DNA of 64,000 nt. Source: Bryopsis sp. KO-2023 (lineage: Eukaryota; Chlorophyta; Ulvophyceae; Bryopsidales; Bryopsidaceae). Both the position numbers and the translations under genes were made by a program. Each line of letters opens with the position of its first letter. Position 1 is the first letter of the stretch. This document shows positions 12,433 through 56,875 of the stretch, piece after piece. The DNA is taken from assembly GCA_030272585.1 (NCBI GenBank), contig BSYQ01000010.1, positions 3,906,001 to 3,970,000 on the forward strand. The letters are read 5' to 3'. Below the pieces are notes generated by a model. The model was not told the origin of the DNA and made no database searches. It saw only the letters and a list, made by a program, of their open reading frames with translations.

Positions 12433-14362
12433 AAAAACAAACAGTTGTATGGAGTTCTGAGGGCTGTGGAGATAGTGGTGGCCAAAAAAATGAAAACAAA
12501 AAGGGTTGACGAAAATTTTCGGTGTTTTCAAAACATGATTTAGAAAAATATTAATAAATTTGCTTTTCACTTCATTACTTGAGTTTCCAAAGACGTGGGG
12601 CCTTTGGGGGGGGGGGGGGTTGGTTAAGAATGGGGAAAAAAATGGTGGAAATTAATTTGGTGCATGCACCGAGAAGCCTAGAGATTCTATCTTTGGAAGA
12701 TTTTGGCTGTTTTCCCATGTTTTTTTCTTTTCCTGTACTGAAAAAAAAAAATGATATCCTAACGATAATTTTTCTGGACGCTTTATTTATAAATATATGT
12801 ATATATAAATTCCTCTTTTCTTGAGATGATGAGGATTTCTCCAATCGTTACGGCGGGAGGGGAAAACCTTTTCTTTTTGTTCGACTGTCAAAAAACAAAA
12901 AATGGAAAAAAAAGCATCAAGAAAATCGGATTGTTGTTGAGTTTAGTACGTGTCATTTTTTTTGCATATTGATTTTTCTGTGTGGAAATTATTAGCACTC
13001 GGTCCCCCTCCTTTTCTTTTGGTTTGAGTTGAGTTGCTCGACCGAAAAGTGGATTTCCATTTTAGAAAATAAGATCATCTAAAGACGGAGGGGGAAAGCA
13101 ACAGGGGCACTTCTTCATGAGCCATGTTCGAAGTAGCATGGTAAACCTTTGTTGAGTTTTGAGGTTTCGGAGTTTTGGAGTATTTAGTGCAGGGGGTTGT
13201 GATTCTTTTAGGTCCTTTTTTCTTTTCCACAGTATTTTTGGTTTGTGGTAGATTCTATCTACACTCGCAGTGCAACAGTGCGGAGGTTTTGAATCATTTC
13301 ATTCATCCTGATCCCATGGAAGGGTGGGTTCTCTAACTTTTGAGGCATTGGGGCCGTTTTTTTTTCGGGGGGGGGGGGCAAGGGGGACTTGCGTGTTTCA
13401 TGTTGTCTGTTTGCTTGGGCCAGACAGTGTGGCAGTCCAATGATTGATGTAAACGAAAGAAGCATACCCCTTGCAATCATTGTTCCACCTAGGCCCAATT
13501 ACACCCCGATATTCACAAACTGAAAGCAGAAGACTGTTCACGATGCATCAGTGAGTTGGTTGTTCAAATATGGCTCCAAATTTTTAAAAAATGTATGGAT
13601 CAAAAGTTTAGTAACATCAACATAGTCTCTTGCTCATCTGGAGGGCCTTGAGTCTGGCACAATGTACCCATCGAAGGGGGGCGGAAAATATTCAAGGGAA
13701 ACCTTGGTCCAGAACACATGGAACTGCACTGGATGATTTTTTTTGCTTGACATGCAAAGAGGACATCTGCTTCAAAGGAAACACCCAACTATGAGAAAGC
13801 TATCTTGATTTAAAGAAACGAACTTGTTCTTTCAGGAAAGAAAACAGAAAGAGCTGTTTCCTGAAAATAAAATCAACTGGATCATTGATAATGTATGATG
13901 AAGAAAAAGGCTGTCTGACAGATGGACCCACCAACCCAATCTACTTCACACCTACAGGTTTTTTTTTTCATTTCTTGTTTTTGGATCTGTTAGGGGGAGG
14001 AGTCTGTTTGCCCATCACCAGCCTTGACCAACACAAGATCCAGTCGTTTAAGGTGTCTTAAACGAATGTTTGCTAGGATCTTTCCTCGTGGGGTCTATCC
14101 TAGTATCCTCTCCTTTCTCCTTTTGATCTTCTCTCTCCCATCTCTTACCTCTTTCTTATTTGCAATCTCACTCTTTCTCACCCTTTATCACTCCGTTTAA
14201 TCGATTCATATCCATGATTGATATAGCACCACTCATGATCGATGAACTTGAACTTTTCAAACGTACTGGGCTATTGAACTTCGAGTGACAAGCCCTTTAG
14301 CGAATCGGCCCACAGTACCCAGCGTATCGTAGAACCGCCTTCCGAAGCGGAGCGGAGCCTCC
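12433..14362. other. Gene-free intergenic region
   Basis: Nearly 2 kb with no supported exon. It contains a long G run at about 12607-12620, another near 13368-13379, A/T homopolymers and a purine/pyrimidine-skewed stretch. Short open frames show no family resemblance and no splice-consistent partners. Confidence 0.6.
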
Positions 14363-14596
14363 AGAGAGTACCTGTTGCGCTTGGGTTGAGTCGTTTTTCG
14401 AGAGAGCCGCGCGGTTGTCTCTCTCGAGTATGCGTGCGCGCTCAGTGTTCCACAGCCTGCATCCGAGAAGCTTCACAAATGTTATCAAGCACCTTCCGGT
14501 GACGTTCGCCGCCTTGATACGTCAGGCGGATTTCGCACGAATAGGTGCTGGTGTTGTATCTCGAGGGGGGTTGGACCATCTCGCAGGCAAGGAGCG

Positions 14597-14805
14597 ATGT
14601 CGACGTCTACGGTAACCGCACCAAAGCTCCCACACTTCTCGGCTTCTGGAACAAATAGTTCTGCTCAACCGCTGATGAAGGTCGCCAAAGCCGTTATCCG
14701 ACGGTTAGGGGAGGCTCAAAAGCGCCGATATCCTGGTGTTCCCTTGACCCACCCTTTCGTTTTGGCAAGAGCTCGGAATATTGCATTTGGAGAACTTCCT
14801 GACGG
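14597..14805 (+). other. Short reading frame conserved in both arms, function unknown
   Basis: A frame starting MSTSTVTAPKLPHF and continuing through KVAKAVIRRLGEAQKRRYP is kept in the other arm (reverse strand, about 56445-56640), where the KVAK...HPFVL block is identical. The nucleotide sequence in this block is also almost identical, so conservation says nothing about coding. It lies upstream of the permease TATA box. It may be an exon of an unrecognised gene captured in the duplication, or noncoding. Confidence 0.2.
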
Positions 14806-15248
14806 AGGACTGACAGAGTTTCACAAAGGAAGCAAAGGATGCATGCTTTGCAAGGAAACGCCCATGCGGACACAGGAAAGTTGGGCTCCGCCTGGATATC
14901 GGGGCGGAAGCGCGGAGGCAATGCGCTCGCGGCGGAGGCAAACGCGCAATCCTCGCGCTTGCAACGGGCAGGATTATTCGTGAAACGTGAGGGGCGTTTC
15001 AGGGGACTACAGGAAAAGACCGTCGTGACCCCTCGCGACCTCACCCATACACACCGTGGCGTGCTGGAATACGCCGAGTCGACGAAGGAGGTCACCATCG
15101 CCTCGAGATGGAAGGTGAGAGTTTGATGGTTACACATCGAGCATCTGTTGCGCTACGGTTGACCCCATCGTTTCAACCTCGGGTGTGGAACATACTTCGC
15201 TCGGGGAGGTTGTTGCTGGGGTGGCGCTCTGTCTGGACTTACCTCGGC

Positions 15249-15274
15249 GACGTCGACGTCATATAAGGGACGTC
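15249..15274 (+). promoter_or_regulatory. TATA box flanked by GACGTC palindromes, permease copy 1
   Basis: ATATAAGG at 15261-15268 lies about 70 bases upstream of the permease start codon and is bracketed by GACGTC palindromes at 15249-15254, 15255-15260 and 15269-15274. GACGTC/TGACGTCA is the core bound by CREB/TGA-type bZIP factors in plants and animals. The arrangement is kept in the other arm with one core degraded, although the sequence around it has diverged. Confidence 0.55.
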
Positions 15275-15329
15275 TTTTTCTCTCTGACGACTTTACGTCA
15301 CTCTTTTTAGTGATCCAGGATTGACCATC

Positions 15330-17472
15330 ATGAGTTCATTGTGGCTGATGTTGCAGGGGTCCATGATTGCCCCAATGTTACTCATCATGGCATTCCTGCT
15401 CATGAATGCCAGGCTCCACTCCGGCAACCCACCCAACATCCAGGCAGTGGTTTGGGTGTGGGCATACACATGGCCCATGGTGGCCCTGGCTGGATTCGCC
15501 AGGCTGCTGCCAGCGATGAAAATTGCCCGACAGGTACCGAATTCATTTTGTGTGCAAAATCAGAACTCAATTTCATGACTGTGGTTCATGCCACCCCCCC
15601 AATCTTCATGCGGTGCCATTTCCACCTTTGATGAACAAAATAGGTATCCAATATGTGACAATTGGCTTTTTTCCCATCGATGTCAAGTGCCTCATACTTG
15701 TGTGTTTTCGACCAGAGATGGCACAGCCCACAGCCCCAGGCAGACCTCAAGAAGATAATGGGTGCTGCGCTGCTGGTGGCTGGCGGCACCGTCGGAGCTG
15801 GCATTGTGGCGCTGCCAGTGAAGACTGCAACGGTGGGGCTGCTGCCATCAGCAGCAGGGCTGGTTGGTGGCTGGGGCTACATGCTCTTGACGGCTTTCCT
15901 CATCGTGGACGTCAGTGAGCACTGTGGCCCCGGCGCCAACTTCACGACCATGGCGGCCAGGACCTTGGGCAAGCGGTGGAAGGCCGTCAGTGCGGCACTG
16001 TACATTTTTGTGTACTGTGCCACACTGACGGCCTACATCGCGGAGAGTGCCACGTTCATCGGTCCTCCGGTGGCGATGGTATTGGGTGAGTGAAAGCTTC
16101 TGAAAGATTGGCAAACAATTCCATTTCTCCCTTTTGTGCCGATGTGTCCATTTTCCTTCATGTGAAAATTTTCATAGTTTCTTGGTGTATGAGAAATTTG
16201 AGCAACAGGGCAAAAGTGCATGAGTTGGTGGATGGACTTGGTGAACTTCTGGGAAAGTGGAAACACAAATCACCGCAGTCAGGATTTTCAATTCTAAGAC
16301 ACTCTGAATCTCATGGTGGTTTGGTCATGTGGCCAGGATATGGGCTGCCCCCCGCCACACTCTCGGCCCTGTTCGCATTGGCATTCGGCGGGGTGATTGC
16401 CATGGGGTCGAGGGCTGTGGACGCAGTGAACACCACCTGCGTGCTGGTGGCCCTCGCAGCCTTTGGCCTGCTGTTGGGGATCGGGGGCACGGGACTGAGC
16501 TGGGCCTCCCTGGCCTATTGCAACTGGTCCGGGGCTGTCAGGACAGTGCCGATCATGATTGTGGCATTCACATTCCACAACATGATCCCCTCACTGTTCG
16601 ATTACTTGAAATCGGCAGCGGCAGTGAGGGTGGCACTGGTCATTGGTGAGTTCTCTTCCTTTTTGAACCTGCTTTATCTGCTTTCTTTTGATGTCTGTCT
16701 TGTTTCTGTTGTGGATCAACTTGGCTGAAACATAGTGTGTGTGTTTTGTTGCAGGGACTTTGATCCCTTTGGCGATGTACCTCCTGTGGGAGGTACTGAT
16801 CCTCGGCAGCCTCCCCCCAGGAACGAGGTTGGCCAGCGTCGGGGACCTTGTGCAGATGATGGGTGGTGCCGGCGCTGTGCCGGTGGCAATCAATGTTTTC
16901 TCATTGTTTGCTATCATCACCTCGTTCCTGGGGGTCGGCATGGGCTGCATCGACTTCGTCAAGGGTGAGTTGATCGAAATGGGTTCTTCTGTTCACTTGT
17001 TTGCTTGAAACAGTCCGAATGTCACTTCCTCCGACATCAAGTTACGGGGATCTTGTGCTATGCTGCAAAACACATGCGGATGGAACGTTTGGTTGAAAGG
17101 ATTGGCCAGGGAAAAGGAAGGAGGAATGCCTCGAGAATGAACCAATAATGATTTGTTGATTGTATTCCTATGACAGACCTGGCTGGGAGGCCCACCAAGG
17201 GCAAGGGGGAGTCAGGGAGTTTTTGGGCAGTGGTGGCGACAATGGCTCCCCCTCTGTGCATCGCCTGCTTGTGCCCAAAGCTATTTGTGGCAGCGTTGGA
17301 GATCTCGGGGATGTTGCGGCTGGTCTTGTTTGCAATCATCCCCACAATGATGGTCAGGACCAGCATGAAATCGGAGGCGAGAAAGGGGTGGATAGCAGCA
17401 GGAGTGGCAGGAATTGCAGTGCTGATAATTCTGGTGGACGTGGCCGGCAGGTTGGGGCCTGTCCTTGCATAA
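15330..17472 (+). CDS. Aromatic amino acid (Trp/Tyr) permease family protein, copy 1
   Basis: Multi-pass transporter resembling the tryptophan/tyrosine permease family (AAAP group, bacterial TyrP/Mtr and plant plastid homologues). Five exons: 15330-15533, 15716-16085, 16337-16645, 16755-16964 and 17177-17472. Total 1389 nt, 462 residues, all junctions in phase. Exon 2 contains the family first helix GAALLVAGGTVGAGIVALP (about 79-97), with its glycine-rich unwound segment. Exons 3-5 add further helices, including FTFHNMIPSLFDYL. Exon 1 (68 residues) encodes two extra hydrophobic segments ahead of the family core, unlike the usual transit peptide. Copy 2 at 53771-55905 keeps the same exon lengths apart from one extra codon in exon 2. 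I count 15 of 68 differences in exon 1 but only 2 of 103 in exon 3, 1 of 70 in exon 4 and 5 of about 98 in exon 5. Substrate and membrane are not determinable. Confidence 0.83.
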
Positions 17473-17795
17473 CATTGTACAACAGCAGTTCATTTCATTT
17501 CATTTAGTGCAGAAGTGGCAAAAATTGCAGTAGGAAAAATTAGAGTGGCAGTTTGGGACCTGCTTTTGTATAACATTGTACAACAGCAGTTCAGTGCATT
17601 TCATTTTAGTGCAGGAGGGGCAGAAATGGCAGCGGGAAAAATTATAGTGGCAGGCTGGGGCCCGTCCTTGTACAACATTGTACAACAGCAGTTCATTTTG
17701 GTGCAGAAGTGGCAGAAATTGCAGTAGGAAAAATTATAGTGGCAGGCTGGGGCCTGTCCTTGTACAACATTGTACAACAGCAGTTCATTTGGGGG
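17398..17795 (+). repeat. Tandem repeat derived from the permease 3' coding end, arm 1
   Basis: Four units of about 95-105 bases. The first unit is the end of the permease coding exon itself, from the GCAGGAGTGGCAGG of the last helix through the stop codon and the following CATTGTACAACAGCAG. The next three are diverged copies of it (GCAGAAGTGGC, GCAGGAGGGGC, GCAGAAGTGGC), each ending in the same TTGTACAACAGCAGTTCA. The later units contain a near-palindromic doublet of TTGTACAA. Arm 2 has five units. Confidence 0.85.
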
Positions 17796-19930
17796 AAGCG
17801 GGATATATCTTTTTTGCTTCGGAACAGCAGCATTTGTTCCTTTTTTTATTTTTTCTAGTTGCTCCACTGCAGTGGTGGCTTTTTTATTTGGGTGGGGGGT
17901 GGGAAGGGGGATTCGGGATTTGGGATTTCAGGATGAAAGGAAAAAGGGATGGGGAAAGAACATTTATTTTCAACAAAAAGGTGGGATGCAAGTGACTAAT
18001 GAGAGGGTACGATGAAGGGGAGGTATATTTGTTGCAGAATGAACAAGACGGAAAGGTTTTCTTTTCTTTTCGAAAAAAAAAAAGGAGAACCAAATAAACA
18101 GGAGGATCTGCAACTCTGGATTCTGATGGAAGCATCACAATTTTTTGGGGGTTACTTTTTTTGTTGAGTTTTTCAACAAAAGAGAGATGTGATTTCAAGA
18201 TGTCCGCATCTTGAATAAAAGAAAATACTTTTTTTTTTTTTTGAAGAGGGGGAGGGGGGGGTTGATGGGATGGGACGGAAAATGGAGTTTTTTTTTGGCT
18301 GCAAAAATCAGTCAGGATGGATTGCTGGCTCTTTTTTCTTCCCTGCACCATGAAGATAAAGAAAAAGGAAAAAGGTCGGTGAAATGGAACAAAAGGAATG
18401 CGAAATCAGGGGTTTGAAAAGCAAATATTTGAACAAGAAAAAACAGAGGGGAACACCGTGGGACGTGTTTTGAGGGGGTGGAACAACAGTCTACATTCTT
18501 GGATTGCTACATTGGAGGTGGAAATTGAGGTAAATAGAGGTATTGATTGCTCGGCTCTGCACATTCGACAGAGCTGATTTGTTTTCTTTTGTGAGAGATT
18601 TTGTCTTATTTTGTGGGGTTTTTGGACGGCCGGTCCATCGTGATTTTTCACGAGGGAAAAAAGCAAGAAACTGGAGCAAATGGAGACGGACCATGTGCAT
18701 ATGATGGATTGGATTCGCTGGCAATCAAAAACAGAATCGATTTTTTTCTTTCCTTTCGTGGAGCGATTGGACCGGTGCTACGTGATGAGTCATGAGTCAT
18801 GACAACAGAATAAAACGGAATTGGAGGGAAATGAAAGCTATTGTGTGCATTCGTGCATGCTATTTGTATATCAGCACTACTGGATATTCGTAGAGCTGGC
18901 GTTTTGTCTTTGGTGAAGTATATGGCCGAAAAGTACATCACACCAAACGGATAAAAATGGAAGGGTCGGGGAAATGCTTCTGTGAATTTATTTGGGGACC
19001 GTCCATACATCGGCAGTGAAGGATGAGGAATTGGAGGAGAATGGTACAGACACTTGGGACTGACTGGGAGGCACATCGATTGCAATACTGCAGCAGTGAG
19101 CAAAAAGGGATTGGGGTGAGGAGCTGGATATATATATATTTTGCTTGGTGAAGGAGATGTTGGAGAGATGACACATCGTGGTTGTCGCGGCTGCGAAAAG
19201 AACGGATATGGGAGGGAGGGTTCCTGGTTTTTTGTTTTCCATTTTTCAGTCAGGTACATCGCGAATTGGGCGATAGGGAAAAAAAGGGAAAAAAACAGCT
19301 ACGGTACGTTTTCTTTCTGTCAGTTTTTTTTAAGGCCAGCACACCACGGAGTGTGTGAAAAGGAAAAAAAGAGAGGGAATTGGATGAAACAGCCGGTGTA
19401 AATTTGGTAGATGTGCCCATAAAAAAAAAGACATGCCACCTATCAGTGTTTGATTTTCATCCGTGTGTGGGATTCACAACACCCCTGTCAGGCAAAAAAA
19501 TATATCTATTTTTGCTGGCCAGATGAGTTTTCCACCCGATGGTGTCTTTTCACACTTCTGCTTTGCAGGTGCCCACCCTGATAATGTTTTATCAAAAGGG
19601 AACCCTTTGCTGCGGACTGTATATTCAAAAGAGAGAAGCAATGCAGCAAAAAGAATGCTTGGTATTTTTTTTCTTCTATTTTTAGCAAGGTAACACAAGA
19701 CATGTATGGTTTGCTTTCATCTCATTGCAGAAGTCTGATTGCCTGGTGCATTTTGTTCAAAAGCAAAAAGGCAATTTTACAAGAACACCACATCATATTG
19801 CCCTTCGTCCTTAACCTCCTATTGCACTTCATTTCATGAATTCATTGTTATTGCTCAGCAAAATGCAGCCACATTGTCAAAACTGCTGCTTAACGAAATT
19901 CCACACTATGTGGGCACACGATGCACTCCA
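17796..19930. other. Noncoding remainder of left arm
   Basis: Downstream part of the duplicated segment, purine-rich on the + strand with long A and G runs. A 203-codon minus-strand frame at 18648-19259 is broken by an indel in the other arm, so it is not treated as a gene. An extra block of about 84 bases near 19645-19730, bounded by GCAG, is absent from the other arm. Confidence 0.6.
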
Positions 19931-20032: not shown

Positions 20033-23000
20033 TTAATCATCATCCCCCGAATCATAACGCCTCCTGACAACTCTTCCAGATTCGTCGTCGTCGTCGTCAC
20101 CCCCATGGTGGCGGCGTTTCCGCTTGGGGAACTTGGACTTGGAACAATCGCCGCAGCGAAATTGAGACGTCATAATCTTGACGCCATAGCCTCCAGAAAT
20201 TGAAGTAGACCTACCCCCCACCACGTTGACCTCACCCCCAGCAATCGCCGAAGTGGGACCCGAGGCACGATTCATTTCACCTCCAGCCACAGACGAGCCC
20301 TTGCCTTCCGCAGCGTTCAAATTCCCTCCTGAAACAGTGGCGAACGCACCTATCGCTCTGTTGCTGTAGCCACCAGAAACGGACGAACACGTCCCAAGGA
20401 CCCCTCCGTTGCAGCCACCACAAATCGAAGCCGTTTTACCAGTACCGGTGTTGTTTTGGCCACCAGCAATCGTCACCATTTCCCCGGTGGCGTTGTTCCG
20501 GCTTCCTCCAGCAACGGTCGCCCGCTGGCCGCCGACAAAATTGTTTTCACCGCCTAATATCGCGGTGTGGTTACCAGACGCGGTGTTGTTCAACCCTCCG
20601 CCAACAGACGAATGGTTCCCCACCACGTCGTTCGAATACCCAGCAGATATGGACGAATAGTGGCCACTCACACTGTTCCTTTGACCACCCGTGACAGTCG
20701 AATGATCGCCGCCGGATTCGTTTTCGTTCCCCCCGACAACGCATCCAGCCGCGCCAGAGGCTACATTTTTGCTCCCACCAGAAACAGATGCACCCGAGCC
20801 AGACGCCGAGTTCTCAATACCACCCGAAATCGACGCACCAATTCCTAAGGCGTCATTTTGCAGCCCTCCAGATACTGTCGACGCTGCCGCCGATGCATTG
20901 TTCAAACTTCCCCCAGTGACCGAGGAGCTCGGCCCGAACGCCACGTTGGCCTCTCCGCCACCAACGAATGCGCCATGTCCAAAAGCGGAGTTTCCAGCAC
21001 CGCCAGCGCTGCATGCTCCAACACCAGAGGCCGAATTGCTGATACCCCCACCAATCCACGCCGTCGCACCCGAAGCGGTGTTGTCCGCACCCCCACCCAC
21101 GGATGCGCTCGGCCCAGAGGCGTAGTTACGGACACCGCCAGCCACGCTTCCACCAGAACCTGATGCAGTATTGTTCATTCCCCCCGCAATTGACGAGGCA
21201 AAACCTAAAGCGATATTCCTTGCACCACCAGATACACCCGCAGAAGGACCAAACGCTATATTGTAATGCCCACCCTGAACAGATGACGTCCCGCCTATTG
21301 CTTGGTTCCCACTGCCCCCAGACGCAAAGGCACCTACGCCAACTGCGGCGTTATCCATTCCTCCAGCGACCACTGAATTGATGCCCGAAGCAAGGTTCTG
21401 ACGTCCGCCAGAGATAGACGCACCACTGCCATCCGCAGAGTTCACTTGGCCGCCCGAAATGGACGAGTAATTTCCGCTGGCAGTGTTCCAAGTCCCACCA
21501 GAAACCGACGCTCCAAAGCCCTCCCCAACATTGCCTTTCCCACCGCCCACAGAGGCATAAGTCCCGATCGCTGAGTTCTCATGGCCCCCTGCAACACCGG
21601 AAAAATCTCCCGATGCCGAGTTGTGTCCTCCAGCGGTCACAGCAGAAAATCTACCTGGGGACGTATTGTTATATCCACCAGCGAAAAACGCGTGGCTCCC
21701 CGCCGCGATGTTATTCTTGCCACCGCTCCCTGCTGCGCTGGTTCCAGATGCAACATTCATGGCGCCGCCAGACACGGACGACCAACTCCCCATCGCCAGA
21801 TTTCCAGCCCCGCCTGATACCGAAGCCCATTCACCCGACGCCTCGTTCGCGGAACCTCCACTCACAGTCGACGACCTACCCAAAGCTTGGTTGCCTTGAC
21901 CACCAGCCACAGCAGACCATCGCTCCATCGCTTTGTTCTGCTTCCCACCCGCCACGGAGGAATAATCGCCGCCAGCGGTATTGTTGAAGCCACCCAAAAC
22001 AGCTGCAAGGTAGCCGCTCGCTGTGCTTTCCAGTCCCCCTGATATCGTGGCTCGAAATCCTGTCACCATGCACCTTTCGCCTCCCAAAATCGTCGACCCA
22101 TCGCCAACCGCATCGTTGTTCCCTCCGCCGAGTACTGTCGAGTAGACGCCTGAAGCCTTGTTTTCGGAGCCAAACACCACCTGTCCTTCACCAGACGCAA
22201 CGTTTCGCTTGCCACCGATGATGCAGCCGTTGCCATTGTAGTTATGGCCGTCTCCGGCGACGAGGTTGTGAGACCCCTTTCCGAAACCACCATCGTTGAA
22301 CCCCAAAATCAGGTTTCCCAGGCCGTTCCTCGATCTGCTGCTCTGTCCATTGTTAATATGCACATTGACCCCATCGAAGGTAACTTGTTTGAGGGTATCA
22401 TCGTAGGCGACGTGGGTGAGTTTGGTTTCCAAATCGGCAACGCGCTCTTCAATCTGCGCCGCGTTTGGTGGCCTGCCCAGATCGAATGTCAAGTGAATAA
22501 TGCATTATTCGACATGAAAGAGTGAAAAATAAGCTTGCTTCACCCCAAAGCAGTTCGCAAATCTCATTGCTAGAAAAAGTGTTCAGGTAGAAAGAACCCT
22601 CAAAACTCCCAAAACCAAATCCTTCAGTTGCAAGGTTCATTTGAAGGCATGCATCACATCAATGTATCACCATTGGAAGGCTCCTGGAGCTTTTTTGGCC
22701 AGACTGACAATGAGTGAAACAGTTCATGTACCCTGTTTTTCTCAACTGATGAGCTCCATTGGGTCAAGTCTGGTAAATGTTTTATTCTTGAAATAAAAAA
22801 GCTACAAACCTTGCGTTCCTGGGGTACGATGACTCCAAAACAATAACCCTCTGCTTCAGTGCAACATTTTCCTCATGCAAGGACAGTAGGGACTTTTCCA
22901 AGACATCCAGCCGCTGAAGAATATCAGAGCTGTCCAACGTGGCACGATTGCCTGAGATCACAGCACCCATTTTCAAATTTTCCTCTGTCGATGCACCCAA

Positions 23001-23269
23001 AATTGTTCAATCGATCGAGGTGTGAATAATGATCAGTGAATTGCGCACCATAGCGCGAAAACGACGCCCTTCTTTTGAAAGAAGGTTGTTCCAGGGCTTT
23101 GTTCATACGATTTTACCCAAAAAAGCCCACTCTTACCGGGTACATGAGTTACAGCTGCAGGGTGGGCCCACGACGAATGAAGACACGTCAAGAGCACCAA
23201 GAATATCGCTCTCAGGCCCTGACGAACGGGGAGGCCGTGGAGACGGTCATGAAATCGCATTCCATGCAT
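20033..23269 (-). CDS. Secreted trimeric-adhesin-head-like repeat protein (YadA/Hia type)
   Basis: Three exons: 23269-23137, 22984-22810 and 22472-20033. Total 2748 nt, 915 residues, both junctions in phase with GT-AG introns. Exon 1 encodes a signal peptide: basic residues, then the hydrophobic core AIFLVLLTCL, ending near SSWA at about 37. Residues about 60-125 form two heptad-like coiled-coil stretches (LQRLDVLEKSLLSLHEENVA; IEERVADLETKL). Residues about 153-866 are some 47 tandem 15-residue repeats of pattern SGGxxNxASGxxSxV. These resemble the left-handed beta-roll head repeats of bacterial trimeric autotransporter adhesins. The tail (about 870-915) has a CGDC pair, the basic cluster KFPKRKRRHH and runs of Asp. 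There is no beta-barrel membrane anchor. I infer an extracellular trimeric fibre. The spliced signal peptide means the gene is adapted to a eukaryotic host. Alternatives are a scale or wall component. Function is unknown. Confidence 0.8.
20200..22320 (-). repeat. 45-base coding tandem repeat inside the head-repeat gene
   Basis: The repeat region of the secreted protein is a degenerate 45-base minisatellite, about 47 units on the minus strand. Each unit encodes 15 residues and no unit shifts frame. Units differ at many positions, so the array is old or under selection rather than recently amplified. Confidence 0.8.
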
Positions 23270-39979: not shown

Positions 39980-42568
39980 TCACCCTGCAAACATGAAATC
40001 AAAAGTGAAAAACAGTTTTTGGAACGCTATTGATGTTTTCTGATATCTAAGATTTCTGAGTAAAAAATGCATGCTGCCAATAGAAAGAAATTAAAGTACT
40101 AATTTAAACTGCTCAAGAAACTCAACAATGCTTTTTGGGTAAAACATGCAGAAACCATTCAACAAAAGAAGAATAACCTGAAAGAATGCTTCAACATTCT
40201 CTTACCCAGAACTTCCACCTCGCACAAAGTCAAGTACCGCTCGTTTCCAGGAATTCGAACAGAAACGAACCTCCCCGTTGTCAGACACTCAAACTCGTAT
40301 GTTTGCCCCCTGGGGACCGCCAGACCTCCCCCACACACCCCATTCTGCTGGCCTCCACCCGATGGCCTCGTGTTCCCCACTCGAATTTCAAAATTGGATA
40401 ACCTTTCTGCACAGCAATCTGATCTATTAGTCACCCTGATCCGCTTTATCTTTTGGGGGGACCCCAGATCCACCGCCCACCAGGGGTTTGACGAGAGGAG
40501 GGTATGTGTGCAGCTTCCCCCTGAGTAGACACCTCTCTTGTTGCCATCCACCGCCCTACCACTCAAGCCTCCCCAGCCAGTGCTCGACTGAAATGTAGGT
40601 TTCGACTGGCTGAGGAGAGTTTCCTCATTCACCGAGATGCCACTGTGCGCTGCATAATAGTCACAAAACATATATGTTACGTACTGCCTAAATCACTGAG
40701 TCTTTCAGTGGTTCATCAAATTTCAAGATTCACCTTCTGCATACACCTCCACCTCGCACAGGGTCAAGACCTTGGCATTCCCAGGGAGCCGCACAGTGAC
40801 GTACCGACCAGTTATGGTGCACACGATTTCCAGTGTTTCACCCCCTCCTATTATCAGCCCACTGGAGCACAGAGGATTTTGAATGGAATTGTCTTTGCTA
40901 CCATCCCCCAGCGGTTTCACATCGCCAACCCGAATCTCAAAATTGTTCAAACGGTCGCTGCAGCAATCCCCTCGATTGGTGACTTTGATACGGGTGACTT
41001 TTCTGGATGCACCGAGGTCCACTGCCCACCAGGGATTTGGAGTGGCATAGTCTTCCTCACTGAAGCCTAAAATAAGTGAAGGGAGAAAAAGTAAAGGAGG
41101 CCTTGGTAAAGTTTTGCTCTTATACACTCAAGGTATTTTCTGATTATTAAGGTTTCAAATTGATGAATTCAGGAAGGAAATCTGGTATCTTTTTACACTT
41201 GAGTAGGTCGCTTTGGCCGTACAGCTGGGGGCTGTTTCAAGTTTCAATCAATGAGTTGTTCATGTGCACCATCATCCAGAAGGACTTTTTTTTTGGAAGA
41301 ATCCCCCCCCCCTTTGCGAAACAAAAAAGCCTATGGACACACCTGTGTGAGTGCAGCTGTTTCCCCCATAACTTGAGTCTCGGTTTCCATCCACTGCGCG
41401 GCTGCTATCTCCCCCAAATGCAGTTGTAGATTGAAATGTGGGACGGCGCCGACTGACTATTTCCTCAGGGGGAGCTGAGGGAAAACGAAAATCATAAATC
41501 ATAAATCATAATTGTTTTGGTGAGGGATGAGGTGGGGGTGCAGGTTCAGCGGAAAAAATAACTCTCAATAACTGCACTCTCATTTTTGCACAACACTCTT
41601 CATGAGAGTTCTTCCCCTGTTTTATTGTTAAAATATGTAAAAAGAAAATCCTGGAGTGGAAAAAGAAAACAGAGAAATATGTTTTCTGGGATGAACTGTG
41701 TAGAACTAACGTGAGGGCATTGGAGGTGGGGGTGGAGGTGGCGGCTGTGGGACTGTGTCGACAGCTTGCTCCTCGCAAGCCAATCTTGTCTGTTGGTCGA
41801 AAGCATCCAAATCATCGTACCACCCCTCATAGTATGGGCCCCTCTCCAGAAGCTCCCGACATTCAGCCAAAGTATCCAGGGTAAATGCCGCTGTGAAACT
41901 GGATTCCAGACAGGTTCCTTCAAAAATGATTGAGCATATCTCCTCCAAGGCGCCATTCATCATAACTGCACACCAGCAACACTCAAGCATCCAGACATAA
42001 TTTAGATATGTACACAGCGTTCCAAAAAATCCAGTCAAAATAAGAAATTCCATAAGGTTCAATGCAGCAGGAAAATCTCTTTATTTTTGAATCTGCAACC
42101 ACTGACGTGATTTGAGCGTGCCATCGCACTTTGTTGATTCTATCGACACCCAACCAACAAATTCTGATATTTTATTGATCGCTTCTGACGATATTGCCTT
42201 AGATCTGTTGTTTTGCGTGTCCAAAACGAGTAGCAGCAGCTCACCATCAGGAAGAGTCGATCCGACGTCGAAAGTAGGGCGGGAACTCGTATCGGATCTG
42301 GACGGTGGATTTCGCTCGAGAAGGACGGCGCACGCCGCCTCTGCAGCGAAATCTCCCGAGTCGAAACCAATCCTCTCGCATTCATCGATGAGCGCGCTGT
42401 AGTCTCGTTCTGTGTCCCCCAACAAAGCGAGTTGATCACGGAAACATCTCCAGAAAACTTTGCCTGTTGGAATCGATCTGGCTTCGAATATCAACGAAAA
42501 CGCTCACGTGCAGCAGCCCCAAGTTGGAGTAACGCCAGGAGGCAGCACCACACGATTGAGTTCCGCAT
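39980..42568 (-). CDS. Secreted protein with two F-type lectin (fucolectin) domains
   Basis: Seven exons: 42568-42508, 42463-42107, 41965-41711, 41474-41343, 41066-40734, 40649-40206 and 39984-39980. Total 1587 nt, 528 residues; every intron is phase 1, typical of shuffled extracellular modules. Exon 1 encodes a signal peptide (MRNSIVWCCLLALLQLGAAA). Exons 2-3 (about 21-215) are an unrecognised acidic, Cys-containing region. A hinge of eight prolines follows (about 214-226). F-type lectin domains lie at about 230-378 and 385-526. The second has the fucose-binding pattern H-x26-R-x-D-x4-R exactly (His428, Arg455, Asp457, Arg462) with the adjacent Cys pair DCC. The first has Arg300, Asp302, Arg307 but a longer spacing from His267. 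The final exon of five bases is uncertain; read-through into the last intron would end after KRMLKHSF. A role in binding fucosylated glycans outside the cell is inferred. Confidence 0.82.
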
Positions 42569-46600: not shown

Positions 46601-49600
46601 TGGATAAACACAGAACAACTGGTGACATGTATTTTTACCTGTCCATGGGGTTTGTGTTAAGAGGGGGTTAAAAGAGGCTGCTGGGGGAGAGTGGGAACAC
46701 CAGGGGAGGACTCTGCTTGGCTTTGTTTTTGACTGGACTTGGGTCTATGGGTTGTGTGGCTGCAGGTTGTGAAGGAGAAGCTCGAGGATCCCCTGTTCAA
46801 ACAAAACTTCAAGCGGTGGGATGTCGAAGAGTTCCGATCCACCATCGAAACTGCGAAGAAAGCTACTGCTGAAGACAAGAAAACAGAGGCAAGAATTGGA
46901 ACAGGGGGTGGGGTGCAGAGTAATAGATCATTTTTGCTTGGTTCGATTTGTCTTTTTTGAATAAAAGCTAAAAGTTTGAAAACAACTCACACTCAGGCAT
47001 GTGCGCGTGTGTGTGCTTCTTCCTTCACAAATACCATAAAAGTGACATGGCACGGTCAAAAAGCTGGGAGGTTTTTGCATCCTGAAAACGTATATCACTT
47101 CCGTGTTTTGAAAGTTTTATTTTCCCTTTTAACCCTTTTGTAGGTGGATGTCGCTGCTATGGTTGCTGGAAAGACGGGACAAGTCGCAAAAGAAATGGTT
47201 GTGGACGATGGGTCTGGCTCCGTGACTGTATGGAGAGTGGAAGATTTCAAATTGAAACAGCTGCCAGAAGACAAATATGGAATGTTTCTTGCAGGCGATT
47301 CGTATGTCATTCGATACTCCTACAAGAAGGGAGGTATGTTCTCGCCCCACACTCCCGTCCCCCAAAAAAGAAAGTAAAAAAGAAAAAAAGAAACATCATT
47401 TCTTCAAGAAAATTAAGCAGAATTGCATCCAGCCACATTTCTCCCCCCTAGTTGTTTTTCTATATTTTGGATGCTCGAAACCTGAAACCAAAGAACTGTA
47501 CTCACATAAAGAAAAAAGATCATGTGTTACAACTTTACACTTGTTTCCAGTTTTTTCTTCTAATACAAGTGAATATGTAAGAAGTACTGTGTGTGTTTGT
47601 GTGTCTTCAGGGTCTGAGAAGCATATAATCTATTTCTGGCAAGGCCGAGATTCTTCCCCAGATGAGAAAGGGACTGCTGCAGCTCTTGCGGCAACCATGG
47701 ACGAAGAACTTGGTGGCCTCCCTGTGCAGGTATTGTTGTGCACCTTTCTGGAAGTCAGATAGTCAGGAAAAGTACGGTTTTGCATTCTCCCCCCTCCCCC
47801 CCCCAAAAAAGAAGGAAAAGAAAAAACAGAAACAAGAAGCAAGGCTGTGTATGCAGCCTGGTGCAAAATTTTGGCAAGGTAGATTTTTCACAATTATGGA
47901 GATCTGCCCCAATTAATGAAACAATCCAGTTTCAGGAGCTCTGTTGAGTCCAACAGAATTCGGCACCTTCAAGATCAGCTCCTTTAGCTTTCTCCTGTTG
48001 GAGCGTTTCTCTGTTCATCTGCCCGACGTTAAAAAACACTGAAAGCAAGAGATCTTGTCGCAAAAACTTTTTTTTTTTGCTCTTTGGAATGGTGTAGGTT
48101 CGTGTTGTGCAAAACAAGGAGCCCAATCATTTCTTCAGAATGTTCGAAGGGGGCATGGTGGTTTCCCTTGGAGGCTTGAAGAATGCCGACGAAGGAAAGA
48201 CTGGACCTAAGGGAGAGAAGCTGTATCACGTCAAATCCACGGATCCCCATGACACACATGCAGTGCAGGTGATATGTGTCTGACGTACGCAGATCTGTTT
48301 GCCCTCCACCCCTTTCTTTTCATCATTTTTTTAAATGCATCGGGTAGAATTGATGCGTCAGACTGGAAGCTGAGCCCCCCCCTCCAGTGTTAGTCATAAT
48401 ATTTCTTCAAAACACCCCCCACACACACGTACACACATGTGTGCAAAACGATAGAATTGAAAAAAATGAATGCTCGATTTTTGTCGAATTGTTTTTAGGT
48501 AACCAATACAATGATGATATTCGAATGTCGTGGCAGGTGTTCGAAACAAAAGACCAAATTGTTGAAAATATATCTCTGCTCGGTCGTTCAGGTCAAGACG
48601 GCAGCACAAAGTCTGAATTCTGGGGACTCTTTTGTGCTGATCGATGAGAAATTGGCGACTGTGTGGCATGGAAAATTGAGCAGCCCCGAGGAGAGGAGCT
48701 TTGCTGAGAAAATCGCTCCTCGCATCGCCGGGTCGAAGCCCGTCAAAGTAGTCAAAGAGGGAGAAGAATCTCAGGTGTTCTGGGGAAAACTCGGAGGTGA
48801 GTTTTGTCTCCTGTTAATCTATGCTTGCGGGTCTGCTTTGCTTGGATTATGAGTAGGTTTTTTTTGTCCTTCTTTGTACCAGGGCGATACGAAGCTTTCA
48901 TAGATGGTTGTATGTATGAGCAGCTTCCCCCTGACCAGTGGTGTTTGTTTCCATGTTATGTGCAGGAAAGAAGAATTACCCCCGAATGGGACTCTTGCCC
49001 CCTCCAGAAATGCCACCACGTCTGTTTCAAATCAGCGATGCTACGACTGGTGGTGAAGGTGTGGTCGTCGAAGAAATCTTTACCTTCGATCAAGAAGATC
49101 TTAACGACGATGATGTCATGCTTCTTGATACCTTCAGAGAGGTAAAGACCATTATTTTTATTTACTTGCTTAGCTTTTTTTATTGTTTTGTTTTTTGTTT
49201 GGGGGGGGGGAGAGGGAGAGTGGGGAAAAACTAACGACAAGAGGTAGATCATTGCTTTTGCTTCTTTTCTGCCTTTTTTTTTTTTGTTTGGGGGAGAGTG
49301 GGGGAAAAAGTCACAAGAAGACAAGGGCTTAGGATGTTGTTGTAGTGTGTGACGCAGCAGATTTTTGGTGAAGTTTGTGAATGCGTTCGAAAAACAAACA
49401 AACTGTGGCCTGGAATGGCATAGTCTCCGAGTATATGAACATACGTGTGGTTGGTTGGTGTTCCTCCAGATTTACCTGTGGATCGGACGAAACGCTCGTG
49501 ACGAAGAGAAATCGAATGCTATTGCTTTGGCAAAGAAATACCTCGAACAGGGTAACAAGGTCAATGGAAGAGATCCCAACGCAGCCATCACAGAGATCAA

Positions 49601-51324: not shown

Positions 51325-53325
51325 GTGTGCAGCACATGGTGTGGCATTTCATTAAGCAGCAGTTTTGACAATGTGGCTGCATTTTTCAGAGCAATAACAA
51401 TGAATTCATGCAATGAAGTGCAGTGGGACGAATGGCGGTCCGATGTAAAAATGCCCCCTTGCTTTTGAGCAAAATGAAAAGACAATCAGACTTCTGCATT
51501 GCTTCTCTCTTTGAATGTACAGTCCCTTTCAATAAAATATTATCAGGGTGGGCACCTCCAAAGAAAAAGTGTGAAAAAGACACCATCGGGTGGAAAACTC
51601 ACCAAACCAGCAAAACTTAACATATACGTTTTGACTGACAGGGGACTTCTGAATCCCACACATGGGAGGAAAGAGAAAAATGCATCAAAATGAAGCACTG
51701 ATAGGCAGCATGTCTTTTTTTTTATGGGCACATCTACAAATTTTTACACCGGCTGTTTCATCCAATTCCCTTTTTTTTGCACACTCCGTGGTGTGCTGGC
51801 CTTAAAAAAACTGACAGAAAGAAAACGTACCGTAGCTGTTTTTTTCCCTTTTTTTCCCTATCGCCCAATTCGCGATGTACCTGACTGAAAAATGGAAAAC
51901 AAAAAACCAGGAACCCTCCCTCCCATATCCGTTCTTTTCGCAGCCGCGACAACCACGATGTGTCATCTCTCCAACATCTCCTTCACCAAGCAAAATATAT
52001 ATGTATCCAGCTCCTCACCCCAATCCCTTTTTGCTCACTGCCGCAGTATTGCAATCGATGTGCCTCCCAGTCAGTCCCAAGTGTCTGTACCATTCTCCTC
52101 CAATTCCTCATCCTTCATTGCCGATGTATGGACGGTCCCCAAATAAAATTCACAGAAGCATTTCCCCGACCCTTCCATTTTTATCCGTTTGGTGTGATGT
52201 ACTTTTCGGCCATATACTTCACCAAAGACAAAACGCCAGCTCTACGAATATCCAGTAGTGCTGATATACAAATAGCATGCACGAATGCACAAAATAGCTT
52301 TCATTTCCCTCCAATTCCGTTTTATTCTGTTGTCATGACTCATGACTCATCACGTAGCACCGGTCCAATCGCTCCACGAAAGGAAAGAAAAAAATCGATT
52401 CTGTTTTTGATTTCCAACGAATCCAATCCGTTGTATGCACATGCTCCGTCTCCATTTGCTCCAGTTTCTTGCTTTTTTCCCTCGTGAAAAATCACGATGG
52501 ACCGGCCGTCCAAAAGCTCCACAAAATAAGACAAAATCTCTCACAAAAGAAAACAAATCGGCTCTGTCAAATGTGCAGAGCCGAGCAATCAATACCTCTA
52601 TTTACCTCAATTTCCACCTCCAATGTAGCAATCCGAGAATTTCCAAGAATTTTCACCTCCTCAAAACACGTCCCACGGTGTTCCCTTCTTTTTTTCTTGT
52701 TCAAATATTTGCTTTTCGAACCCCTGATTTCGCATTCCTTTTGTTCCATTTCACCGACCTTTTTCCTTTTCCTGTATCTTATGGTGCAGGGAAGAAAAAA
52801 AACCAGCAATCCATCCTGACTGATTTTTGCAGCCCAAAAAAACACCATTTTCTGTCCCATCCCATCAACCCCCCCCCCCTCCCCCTCTTCAAAAAAAAAA
52901 AAGCATTTTCTTTTATTCAAGATGCTGACATCTTGTAATCTTGTCTCTCTTTCGTTGAGAAATTCAACAAAAAAAGTAACCCCCCAAAAAATTGTGAAGC
53001 ACCACCTCACATGGAGTTGCAGATCCTCCTGTTTATTTGGTTCTCCTTCTTTTTTTTTCGAAAAGAAAACCTTTTGCCGCAGTAATTATACCTCCCCTTC
53101 ATCTTACCCTCTCATTAGTCACTTGCATCCCACCTTTTTGTTGAAAATAGATGTTCTTTCCCCATTCCTTTTTTCCTTTCATCCTGAAATCTCAAATCCC
53201 AAATCCTGAATCCCCCTTCCCACCCCCCACCCAAATAAAAAAGCCACCACTGCAGTGGAGCAAAATAAAAAAAAAGGAACAAATGCTGCTGTTCTGAAGC
53301 AAAAAAAAGTACCCCTCTTCCCCCT

Positions 53326-53850
53326 GCACTAAAATGAAAATCACTGAACTGCTGTTGTACAATGTTGTACAAGGACAGGCCCCACCCTGCCGGCCATATC
53401 CACTATAATTATCCCCACAGCTATTCTTGCCATTCCTGCACTAAGTAAAACGAAATGAACTGCTGTTGTACAATGTTGTACAAGGACGGGTCCCAGCCTG
53501 CCACTATAATTATCCCCACAGCTATTCTTGCCATTCCTGCACTAAGTAAAACGAAATGAACTGCTGTTGTACAATGTTGTACAAGGACAGGCCCCAGCCT
53601 GCCCCTCTAATTTTTCCTACTGCAATCTTTGCCACTTCTGCACCAAAATTAACTGCTGTTGTACAATGTTATACAAAAGCAGGCCCCAACCTGCCGGCTA
53701 TAAATACTCCCACTGCCATTTCTCCCACTCCTGCACTAAATGAAATGAAATGAACTGCTGTTGTACAATGTTATGCAAGGACAGGCCCCAACCTGCCGGC
53801 CACGTCCACCAGAATTATCACCACTGCAATTCCTGCCACTCCTGCTGCTA
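53326..53850 (-). repeat. Tandem repeat derived from the permease 3' coding end, arm 2
   Basis: Five units of about 90-110 bases, each with the core CTGCTGTTGTACAATGTT on the + strand (reverse of the arm 1 core). The rightmost unit is the coding end of the permease. Two neighbouring units near 53400-53560 are nearly identical to each other, pointing to a recent duplication in this arm only. Confidence 0.85.
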
Positions 53851-55905
53851 TCCACCCCTTTCTCACCTCAGATTTCATGCTGGCCCTGACCATCATTGCG
53901 GGGATGATTGCAAACAAGACCAGCCGCAACATCCCCGAGATCTCCAACGCTGCCACAAATAGCTTTGGGCACAAGCAAGCAATGCACAGAGGGGGAGCCA
54001 TTGTTGCCACCACTGCCCAAAAACTCCCGGACTCCCCCTTGCCCTCGGTGGGCCTCCCAGCCAGGTCTGTCATAGGAATACAATCAACAAATCATTTTTG
54101 GCTCATTCTCGAGGCATTTCTCTATCTTTTTTTTCCCTAAACAATCCTGTCAATCAAAGGTTCCATCCGCATGTGTTTTGCAGCACAAGAGTCCCATAAC
54201 ACGATGTCAGGAGGAAGTGGCATTCGGACCGTTTCACGCAAACAAGTGAACAGAAGAACCCATTTCGATCAACTCACCCTTGACGAAGTCGATGCAGCCC
54301 ATGCCGACCCCCAGGAACGAGGTGATAATGGCAAACAATGAGAAAACATTGATTGCCACCGGCACAGCGCCGGTACCGCCCATCATCTGCACAAGGTCCC
54401 CGACGCTGGCCAACCTCGTTCCTGGGGGGAGGCTGCCGAGGATCAGTACCTCCCACAGGAGGTACATCGCCAAAGGGATCAAAGTCCCTGCAACAAAACA
54501 CACACACACCATGTTTCAGCCAAGTTGATCCACAACAGAAACAAGACAGACATCAAAAGAAAGCAAATAGAAAAGGGTTCAAAAAGGAAGAGAACTCACC
54601 AATGACCAGTGCCACCCTCACTGCCGCTGCCGATTTCAAGTAATCGAACAGTGAGGGGATCATGTTGTGGAATGTGAATGCCACAATCATGATCGGCACT
54701 GTCCTGACAGCCCCGGACCAGTTGCAATAGGTCAGGGAGGCCCAGCTCAGCCCTGAGCCCCCGATCCCCAACAGCAGGCCAAAAGCTGCGAGGGCCACCA
54801 GGACGCAGGTGGTGTTCACTGCGTCCACAGCCCTCGACCCCATGGCAATCACCCCGCCGAATGCCAATGCAAACAGGGCCGAGAGTGTGGCAGGGGGCAG
54901 ACCATATCCTGGCCACATGACCAAACCACCATGAGATTCAGAGTGTCTTAGAATTGAAAATCGTGACTGTGGTGATTTGTGTTTTCATTTTTCCCAGAAG
55001 TTCACCAACTCCATCCACCAACTCATGCCTGCTGGCTCCATGGCTCAAAATTCTCATACACCAAGAAACTATGAAAATTTTCACATGAAGGAAAATGGAC
55101 ACATCGGCACAAAAGGGAGAAATGGAATTGTTTGCCAATCTTTCAGAAGCTTTCACTCACCCAATACCACCGCCACCGGAGGACCGATGAACGTGGCACT
55201 CTCCGCGATGTAGGCCGTCAGTGTGGCACAGTACACAAAAATGTACAGTGCCGCACTGACAGCCTTCCACCGCTTGCCCAAGGTCCTGGCCGCCATGGTC
55301 GTGAAGTTGGCACCGGGGCCACAGTGCTCACTGACGTCCACAATGAGGAAAGCCGTCAAGAGCATGTAGCCCCAGCCACCAACCAGCCCCGCTGCTGATG
55401 GCAGCAGCCCCACCGTTGCAGTCTTCACTGGCAGCGCCACAATCCCAGCTCCGACGGTGCCGCCAGCCACCAGCAGCGCAGCACCCATTATCTTCTTGAT
55501 GTCCATCGCTGGGCGCTGTGGGCTTTGCCATCTCTGGTGGAAAACACATAGGTTGCAATTGGCATCGTTAAAAATATGCCAATTTGTCTTACACTGGATA
55601 CATATTTTGTTCATCATGGCACCGCATGAAGATTTGGGGAGCGGAATTAATCACAGTAATGAAATTGGGTTTTGAGTATCCCCACAAAATGAATCAGTTA
55701 CCTGTCTGGCCATTTTTATTGCTGGCAATAGCCTGGTGAACCCAGCCAGGGCCAACATGGGCATGGTGTAGGCCCACACCCACACCATTGCCTGGATGGT
55801 GGGTGGCTTGCCTGAGTGGAGCTTGGCATTCACCACCAGGAATGCCATGATGAGAATGATTGGGGCAATCATGGACCCCTGCAACACCAGCCATATTGAG
55901 CTCAT
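53771..55905 (-). CDS. Aromatic amino acid (Trp/Tyr) permease family protein, copy 2
   Basis: Paralogue of the gene at 15330-17472. Five exons: 55905-55702, 55533-55161, 54908-54600, 54487-54278 and 54066-53771. Total 1392 nt, 463 residues, one codon more than copy 1 at the start of exon 2 (RWQSPQRPAMD against RWHSPQPQAD). From KKIMGAALL onward the two proteins differ at only about nine positions. In exon 1 they differ at 15 of 68, mostly conservative hydrophobic swaps (Leu/Ile, Met/Val, Arg/Lys). Such changes suggest exon 1 is translated and constrained. No stop or frameshift is present, so both copies look functional. The two genes point toward each other across the spacer. Confidence 0.83.
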
Positions 55906-55963
55906 GATGGTTAATCCTGGATCACTAAAAAGAGTGACGTAAAGTCGTCAGAGATAGAAAAAA

Positions 55964-55983
55964 GACGTCCCTTATATGACGTC
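55964..55983 (-). promoter_or_regulatory. TATA box flanked by GACGTC palindromes, permease copy 2
   Basis: On the minus strand ATATAAGG lies between GACGTC at 55978-55983 and GACGTC at 55964-55969, the same arrangement as in copy 1. The third core is degraded here to AACGTC. Confidence 0.5.
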
Positions 55984-56875
55984 AACGTCGCCGAGGTAAG
56001 TCACACTTTCGAGACAGAGCGGAACCCCAGAAACCTCCTCCCGAAGAAAGCATGCTTCGCACCCAAGGTTGAAACTGTGGGGCAAACTGTAGCGTAACAG
56101 GTGCTTGCTGAACACCCATCAAATTCTCACCTTCAGTCTCGAGGCGATTGGCACCTCCTTCGTGGACTCGGCGTGTTCGAGCACGCCACGGTGGTGTGTA
56201 TGGGTGAGGTCACGACGATCTTTTCCTGTGGTTTTCTGGAACGCCCCTCACGTTTCCCGAATAAGCCTGCCCGTCGCAAGCGCGAGGATTGTGCGTTTGC
56301 CTCCGCCACGAGCGCGTTGCCTCCGCGCTTCCGCCCCGATATCCAAGTGGAGCTCAATTTTCCTGTGTCGCCAAGGGCTTTTCCTTGCATAGCATGCATC
56401 ATTTCCTTTCTTGCCAATCTGTGTATCTTCTGTCAGTCCTCCTCTCCAAAAGCAATATTCCGAGCTCTTGGCAAAACGAAAGGGTGGGTCAAGGGAACAC
56501 CAGGATATCGGCGCTTTTGAGCCTCCCCTAACCGTCGGATAACGGCTTTGGCGACCTTCATCAGCAGTCGAGCAAAACTATTTGCTCCAGAAGCCGAGAA
56601 GTGTGTGAGCTTTGGTGCGGTTCCCGTAGACGTCGACATCGTTCCTTGCCTGCGAGATGGTCCAACTCCCCTCGAGATACAACACCAGCACCTATTCGTG
56701 TGAAATCCGGCTGACGTATCATGGCGGCGAACGTCACCGGAAGATGCTTGATAACATTTGTGAAGCTTCTCGGATGCAGGCTGTGGAACACTGAGCGCGC
56801 ACGCATACTCGAGAGAGACAGCCCCGCGGCTCTCTCGAAAAACGATCCAACAAAAGCGCAACAGGTGCTCGCTCG

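What the first reader, a model, noticed from the sequence alone, without database searches (positions are those of the whole stretch)
20033..23269. Secreted eukaryotic protein made of about 47 trimeric-adhesin head repeats
The sequence shows a spliced gene whose first exon is a signal peptide, whose second and third exons form coiled coils, and whose long exon encodes tandem 15-residue repeats of pattern SGGxxNxASGxxSxV. Repeats of this kind belong to YadA/Hia-type bacterial surface adhesins. No membrane barrel follows, so it cannot be an autotransporter. I infer a horizontally acquired or convergent beta-roll fibre adapted for export by an alga.
Basis: partly seen in the sequence, partly recalled or inferred. 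Interest (0 to 1): 0.88.

Follow-up and report, generated by a model that had tools for sequence, protein, structure and literature searches.

The report
Bacterial-type adhesin fibre in green alga
A green alga appears to carry, in its own nuclear genome and with introns and an export signal, a single gene for a long three-stranded surface fibre of a kind otherwise seen here only in bacteria and their viruses.

Summary
The host is a chlorophyte-like green alga; the gene is single-copy on a 5.1-Mb contig that also bears RbcS genes. The interpretation needs changing. No YadA-head or anchor family matches the protein, so it is not a YadA/Hia autotransporter. Convergence is unlikely: between coil and repeats lies a non-repetitive cap of about 70 aa that matches a profile of 84 bacterial and phage-contig caps at 66.7 bits (best of 2000 shuffles 10.0). 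That cap-plus-roll family is widespread in bacteria (320 loci), and 76 of 78 closed relatives have no room for a barrel. The algal coil carries three RhxxhE trimerisation motifs; 36 of 84 relatives have one. Best reading: an old bacterium-to-alga transfer, now a secreted trimeric left-handed beta-roll rod about 22 nm long. Splicing, expression, trimer and function are inferred. The Pfam name 'grass antifreeze beta roll' more likely reflects fold than ice binding, which is not excluded.

The parts
23137..23269 (-). Exon 1: start codon and signal peptide
   Evidence: In-frame with exons 2 and 3 through a GT-AG intron; most hydrophobic stretch of the protein, AIFLVLLTCLH. Cleavage after SWA is my inference.
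22985..23136 (-). Intron 1 (GTAAGA...CGACAG)
   Evidence: Sequence and frame; no transcript
22810..22984 (-). Exon 2: coiled coil with RhxxhE motifs RLDVLE and RVIVLE (residues 69 and 90)
22473..22809 (-). Intron 2 (GTTTGT...GGGCAG)
   Evidence: Sequence and frame; no transcript
20033..22472 (-). Exon 3 with stop codon: second coil, cap, roll, tail
   Evidence: 2440 nt, open
22427..22444 (-). Third RhxxhE motif, RVADLE (residues 113-118)
22220..22420 (-). Non-repetitive cap (residues 121-187)
   Evidence: 66.7 bits against a profile of 84 bacterial and phage-contig caps; best of 2000 shuffles 10.0
20198..22219 (-). 45 beta-roll repeats (residues 188-861)
   Evidence: AlphaFold roll of the first part at pLDDT about 98
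20036..20197 (-). Hydrophilic charged tail (residues 862-915; 13 K/R, 11 D/E), no membrane stretch

Best explanation
The gene descends from a gene of the bacterial cap-plus-beta-roll family, taken up from a bacterium or through a phage or other carrier, and was fixed in the nuclear genome of a green alga, where it has introns and an export signal. The protein enters the ER by its signal peptide. Two coiled-coil stretches with RhxxhE motifs bring three chains together. The cap leads the coil into the roll, and each chain winds 45 layers of a left-handed parallel beta-roll: a rod of about 22 nm (45 x 4.8 A) that ends in a charged tail. Without a membrane anchor it is released to the wall or mucilage, where it most likely works as a multivalent structural or adhesive rod. 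Shown by computation: gene model, cap homology, repeat statistics, motif counts. Inferred: splicing, expression, direction of transfer, trimer, location, function. My estimates: shared ancestry with the bacterial family 0.95; transfer from bacteria, direct or carried, 0.85; secreted 0.85; trimer 0.7; structural or adhesive extracellular role 0.5.
For: In-frame three-exon model. 45 repeats far beyond shuffles; repeats 41% identical in protein, 57% at codon positions 1+2, 29% at position 3, and no DNA tandem array listed in the exon, as expected of an old array kept by selection. Cap profile 66.7 bits against 10.0 for the best of 2000 shuffles. 320 encoded relatives in prokaryote genomes; the 80 kept have bacterial titles. 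The gene lies on a contig with 6 of the 10 RbcS exon matches, is single-copy, and its GC3 of 0.548 is like that of three window ORFs, 0.528-0.597. Three RhxxhE motifs in the algal protein; 36 of 84 relatives against 1.0 expected and 14 of 25 database proteins against 0.2; motif defined in PMC3653964, passages. 40 of 120 listed homologues carry PF13884 Peptidase_S74, which I recall as a chaperone of trimeric fibres. UspA1 head 3pr7 is the best solved-structure match, 67.8 bits. Roll modelled at pLDDT about 98.
Against: No transcript, no trimer model, no assay. The cap is modelled at pLDDT about 50. [quoted passage not shown] Pfam's only match over its cut-off is LbR_Ice_bind, and the shorter UspA1 entry 3ntn scores the same 25.5 bits as the ice protein 3ult. 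The alga has no supported place in the cap tree (30/69), so the donor and even the direction are not read from the tree. No other eukaryote with the cap was seen, so vertical history cannot be tested.
Confidence: 0.65

Rival explanations
1. It is a secreted ice-binding (ice recrystallisation inhibition) protein, a long relative of the grass antifreeze beta-roll.
For: LbR_Ice_bind is the only Pfam family over its cut-off, E 4.3e-14, 52.8 bits, cut-off 30. The grass protein 3ult matches at 25.5 bits and the cap-plus-repeat profile A1 matches it at 25.8 bits.
Against: The same family label fits 49 of 58 scanned members, of which 57 are bacterial and many come from ordinary sediments. UspA1 3pr7 scores 67.8 bits. 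Only one conserved Asn per repeat (N6 41 of 44; S/A at position 13 in 39 of 44), whereas I recall xxNxVxG on both turns for the grass protein. Coil and cap are not part of that family as I know it.
Confidence: 0.1
2. The gene reached the alga through a virus (phage-like or algal), not directly from a bacterium.
For: 5 of 59 pattern matches in viral contigs encode the cap. Of 10 neighbouring ORFs examined on four of those five contigs, 5 match PHROGs families, among them a virion structural protein and a replication protein. PMC12906663 (passages) reports trimeric autotransporter adhesins (YadA) in prasinoviruses of green algae.
Against: The whole P0001 found nothing in 50,697 phage records. 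The viral caps do not group with the alga with support, except that L083 falls in the same weakly supported set (30/69). The prasinovirus proteins were not compared here.
Confidence: 0.12
3. Bacterial contamination, a chimeric assembly or a dead gene.
For: The family is otherwise bacterial in all named hits that I saw, and there is no transcript evidence.
Against: The gene lies inside a 5,138,194-base contig with RbcS genes, next to intron-bearing or transposon sequence, and its own model has two GT-AG introns and an open 2440-nt exon. Conserved residues persist while third positions are near random.
Confidence: 0.04
4. Convergent evolution of a simple Gly/Ser/Asn-rich repeat protein in the alga.
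For: Short glycine-rich repeats arise easily and the roll alone can be reached from many starting points (general knowledge).
Against: The non-repetitive cap matches the bacterial profile at 66.7 bits against 10.0 in shuffles, and the repeats-only sequence is not among the rows shown. The order coil, cap, roll is shared, and so is the trimer motif just before the cap.
Confidence: 0.03

Closest known systems
Unnamed bacterial cap-plus-beta-roll proteins (e.g. P0122; P0116 and P0106 of Myxococcota; L001 of a Deltaproteobacteria MAG)
   Same: Coil, cap and roll in the same order; the 13 other caps in A1 are 39-48% identical to the alga; RhxxhE before the cap in 36 of 84 loci; in 76 of 78 closed loci at most 43 residues follow the last GG
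   Different: The proteins that I read have a further N-terminal region before the coil; 41 of 78 closed loci end in a [WY]x[AVG]G motif that the alga lacks; the alga has introns and a charged tail, and its roll has 40 GG..N against at most 24 in 78 loci and 30 in 45 cap-bearing database proteins
UspA1 head (PDB 3pr7), a trimeric autotransporter adhesin
   Same: 15-residue repeats (PMC9543794 passages) and the best solved-structure match, 67.8 bits
   Different: The cap profile matches 3pr7 only in its repeat part, positions 82-118. Coil and roll order are reversed, and the alga has no anchor
Repeat proteins with a Peptidase_S74 chaperone (phage-tail-fibre-like)
   Same: Same kind of repeats; 40 of the 120 listed homologues carry PF13884
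   Different: The algal protein has no S74 domain
Grass ice-binding beta-roll (LbR_Ice_bind, PDB 3ult)
   Same: Same broad fold by profile, 52.8 bits
   Different: One conserved Asn per repeat, coil and cap present; weaker match (25.5 bits)

Membership tests
Trimeric autotransporter adhesin (YadA/Hia type) | C-terminal membrane-anchor barrel (YadA_anchor) | tested here: not met
   No such family in the Pfam scan of P0001 up to E 10 or of the spliced protein; the tail is hydrophilic
Trimeric autotransporter adhesin (YadA/Hia type) | YadA_head / Hep_Hag repeats (PF05658) | tested here: not met
   No match in the protein or the genome. UspA1_rep matches only at E 1.1, 10.1 bits, cut-off 27
Trimeric autotransporter adhesin (YadA/Hia type) | Left-handed parallel beta-roll head | tested here: inconclusive
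   Sequence match to UspA1 3pr7, E 6.3e-18, and a regular short-strand model; handedness and fold were not compared because the fold search was off
Trimeric autotransporter adhesin (YadA/Hia type) | Trimer | tested here: inconclusive
   Three RhxxhE motifs, but no multimer model or experiment
Bacterial cap-plus-beta-roll family (described here) | Non-repetitive cap (GxN...NGLGNL...GSHN) | tested here: met
   66.7 bits, best of 2000 shuffles 10.0
Bacterial cap-plus-beta-roll family (described here) | Coil before the cap, roll after it | tested here: met
Bacterial cap-plus-beta-roll family (described here) | C-terminal [WY]x[AVG]G ending | tested here: not met
   Found in 41 of 78 closed loci, so it is common but not defining; the algal tail differs
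Grass ice-binding beta-roll (LbR_Ice_bind) | Pfam profile over its cut-off | tested here: met
   52.8 bits, cut-off 30; also in 49 of 58 members scanned
Grass ice-binding beta-roll (LbR_Ice_bind) | Two xxNxVxG faces per repeat (recalled) | tested here: not met
   One conserved Asn per repeat; position 13 is S/A in 39 of 44
Grass ice-binding beta-roll (LbR_Ice_bind) | Ice-binding activity | not testable with these tools
   Needs an assay

The most novel reading that the evidence does not exclude
A eukaryote exports a working trimeric beta-roll adhesin rod of bacterial descent through the ER, without any autotransporter barrel, and has lengthened it to 45 layers as part of its own cell surface or matrix.
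Probability: 0.45. Interest if true: 0.78.

Novelty: new variant of a known kind. Interest (0 to 1): 0.62.

Why it matters
Trimeric beta-roll heads are known as bacterial surface adhesins. A spliced copy with a signal peptide in a green alga would show that the roll can be exported by the eukaryotic ER and reused at a eukaryotic surface. It also draws attention to a widespread bacterial family (cap plus roll, mostly no room for a barrel) for which I found no named function.

Tried and rejected
Convergence: rejected on the cap. YadA/Hia membership: rejected. Further copies in the genome: PF21300 also hits C9:3129899-3130576 and C3:1473132-1473317. The frames printed around the C9 place are low-complexity repeats, though I did not confirm which frame matches; the C3 match has 8 stops. 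I take both as chance. Donor phylum: tree unresolved. NCBIfam: nothing; PHROGs: one weak match, E 0.089. Host genus: PsbO points to chlorophytes. I suspected Bryopsis sp. KO-2023 from memory of genome size; the genome paper is not held, section 3 of PMC12509668 gives no host genome size, and a search on 91 Mb gave one sponge paper. The genus stays unproven. Literature: the listings showed no eukaryotic protein of this kind; they cover open-licence PMC papers only and I read titles and abstract starts.

Full report
WHAT IS THERE. On the minus strand, 23269-20033, three exons join in frame through two GT-AG introns into a 915-aa protein. Exon 1 gives a signal peptide with the most hydrophobic 11-residue stretch of the protein. 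Exon 2 is a coiled coil. The repeats exceed chance by a wide margin: GG..N 40 times against a shuffle maximum of 11. They average 41% amino-acid identity, 57% at codon positions 1 and 2, and 29% at position 3, close to random, and Tandem Repeats Finder lists no array in the exon. So the array is old as DNA and, by inference, kept by selection on the protein.

WHERE IT IS. The genome has 91.1 Mb in 28 contigs. It has nuclear RbcS (10 exon matches, 6 of them on C10, the gene's own contig) and PsbO at two places. Against solved structures PsbO matches best 6kac at 226.5 bits, which I recall as Chlamydomonas; entries that I recall as land plants reach at most 186.7 bits. I conclude a chlorophyte-like green alga; the genus is not established. 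The only match of the protein in the genome is itself (candidates are limited there). GC3 is 0.548, like three other window ORFs (0.528-0.597). Of 30 window ORFs scanned with Pfam, 7 match at the limits used, two of these below cut-off; they include a Ty3/gypsy-type polymerase, two amino-acid permease fragments, an MFS transporter, a galactose-binding domain and a gelsolin repeat.

WHAT IT IS RELATED TO. A search with exon 3 gives 2429 proteins at E <= 1e-3 among the 8000 candidates scored; 120 are listed, and those with an organism name are bacterial. The decisive part is the cap, because repeats can converge and the cap cannot easily. It was recognised in 28 of the 122 proteins then held, P0001 included. 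A scan of prokaryote genomes gave 320 encoded relatives among 353 pattern matches; the best 80 have bacterial titles, many from Myxococcota and other former Deltaproteobacteria, Gammaproteobacteria, Planctomycetota and Bacteroidota. Five of 59 matches in viral contigs also encode it. A profile from 84 of these 85 loci (one, truncated, dropped), made without the alga, scores 66.7 bits on the algal cap; the best of 2000 shuffled controls scores 10.0. In alignment A1 the 13 other caps are 39-48% identical to the alga. In an 85-row tree of 78 columns the alga has a long branch (1.46) and no supported place (30/69), and bacterial phyla are mixed. So the donor is unknown, and transfer from bacteria is argued from distribution, not from the tree. 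Searches with the N-terminal part gave 1 hit among 66 candidates and 17 among 4664. The two named ones are bacterial, most have no name, and I saw no eukaryotic relative. These searches reach only sequences that share exact words.

BARREL OR NOT. Of 78 loci with a closed 3' end (of 85), the residues after the last GG have a median of 22; the largest values are 164, 102 and 43, so in 76 of 78 there is no room for a YadA-type anchor of about 70 residues (size recalled). The two exceptions were not examined. Pfam over 58 members (the alga and 57 of the 80 genome loci) gives LbR_Ice_bind in 49, UspA1_rep in 12, several coiled-coil families, one Collar and one Collagen; YadA families are not among the 25 of 37 families shown.

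HOW IT PROBABLY WORKS. [quoted passage not shown] PMC5940361, one passage). It occurs three times in the algal protein, each time in the coil: RLDVLE, RVIVLE, RVADLE. The shuffles were made on a slice that cut off the third; its 2 motifs were reached in 3 of 5000 free and 6 of 5000 pattern-keeping shuffles. Among relatives, 36 of 84 loci have it in the 60 residues before the cap against 1.0 expected, and 14 of 25 database proteins against 0.2. Many of these sequences are related, so the counts are not independent. Against the trimer, 48 of 84 lack it there, and an Asn at an apparent a position of the exon-2 coil is something I recall from dimers.

The best solved-structure match is the UspA1 head 3pr7 (67.8 bits, residues 241-519); a shorter UspA1 entry, 3ntn, and the grass ice protein 3ult both score 25.5. 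PMC9543794 (passages) says that UspA1 repeats are mostly 15 residues and that beta-roll layers rise 4.8 A; 45 layers would give about 22 nm. The AlphaFold model of 240 residues (32-row alignment) has mean pLDDT 81.5 and pTM 0.75, with a regular roll at about 98 and a cap at about 50. A cap that orders only in a trimer would look like this, but so would a poor model.

LENGTH. The algal roll has 40 GG..N against at most 24 in 78 cap-bearing loci and at most 30 in 45 cap-bearing database proteins. It is not the longest of its kind overall: 19 of 136 database homologues have 40 or more, up to 51.

TAIL AND FUNCTION. The best 19-residue hydropathy after residue 40 is 1.09, so I see no membrane or GPI signal; 11 N-glycosylation sequons lie in the roll. 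I expect a secreted rod held in wall or mucilage. Adhesion or matrix building is inference from the bacterial analogues, and the function of the bacterial cap family itself is not known to me.

WHAT IS NOT SHOWN. Transcription, splicing, secretion, trimer, function, donor, and presence in other algae.

VERDICT. Observation confirmed. Interpretation partly supported: beta-roll yes, bacterial descent likely, YadA/Hia membership no. New variant of a known kind, interest 0.62.

Noticed in passing
14359-19919 and 51325-56877: Inverted segmental duplication: arms of about 5.5 kb, 89-92% identical, each with an amino-acid-permease fragment (PF03222) and a ~100-bp tandem repeat, flank a 31.4-kb segment; the fibre gene lies just inside, its stop codon 114 bp from the left arm's inner edge.
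   Followed up: partly
40159-40692 (-): Galactose-binding F5/8 type C domain (PF22633, E 2.7e-20), possibly a lectin-like secreted protein, in the same 31-kb segment.
   Followed up: no
59115-61748 (-): Ty3/gypsy-type retrotransposon polymerase, open over 877 aa.
   Followed up: no
47256-47762 (+): Gelsolin repeat fragment (PF00626, E 3.5e-7).
   Followed up: no
P0002, P0123: In some relatives the cap recurs inside one protein (five and three NGLGN words), so cap plus roll seems to be a reusable module.
   Followed up: no
L082, L084, L085: In three viral contigs the cap gene lies downstream of a ribonucleotide reductase gene, and their caps fall in one set with Planctomycetota and Nitrospinota caps (91/80).
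   Followed up: no
L062: A MAG titled Klebsiella pneumoniae holds an 811-aa cap-roll ORF that lies apart from the other gammaproteobacterial caps; a mislabelled bin is likely.
   Followed up: no
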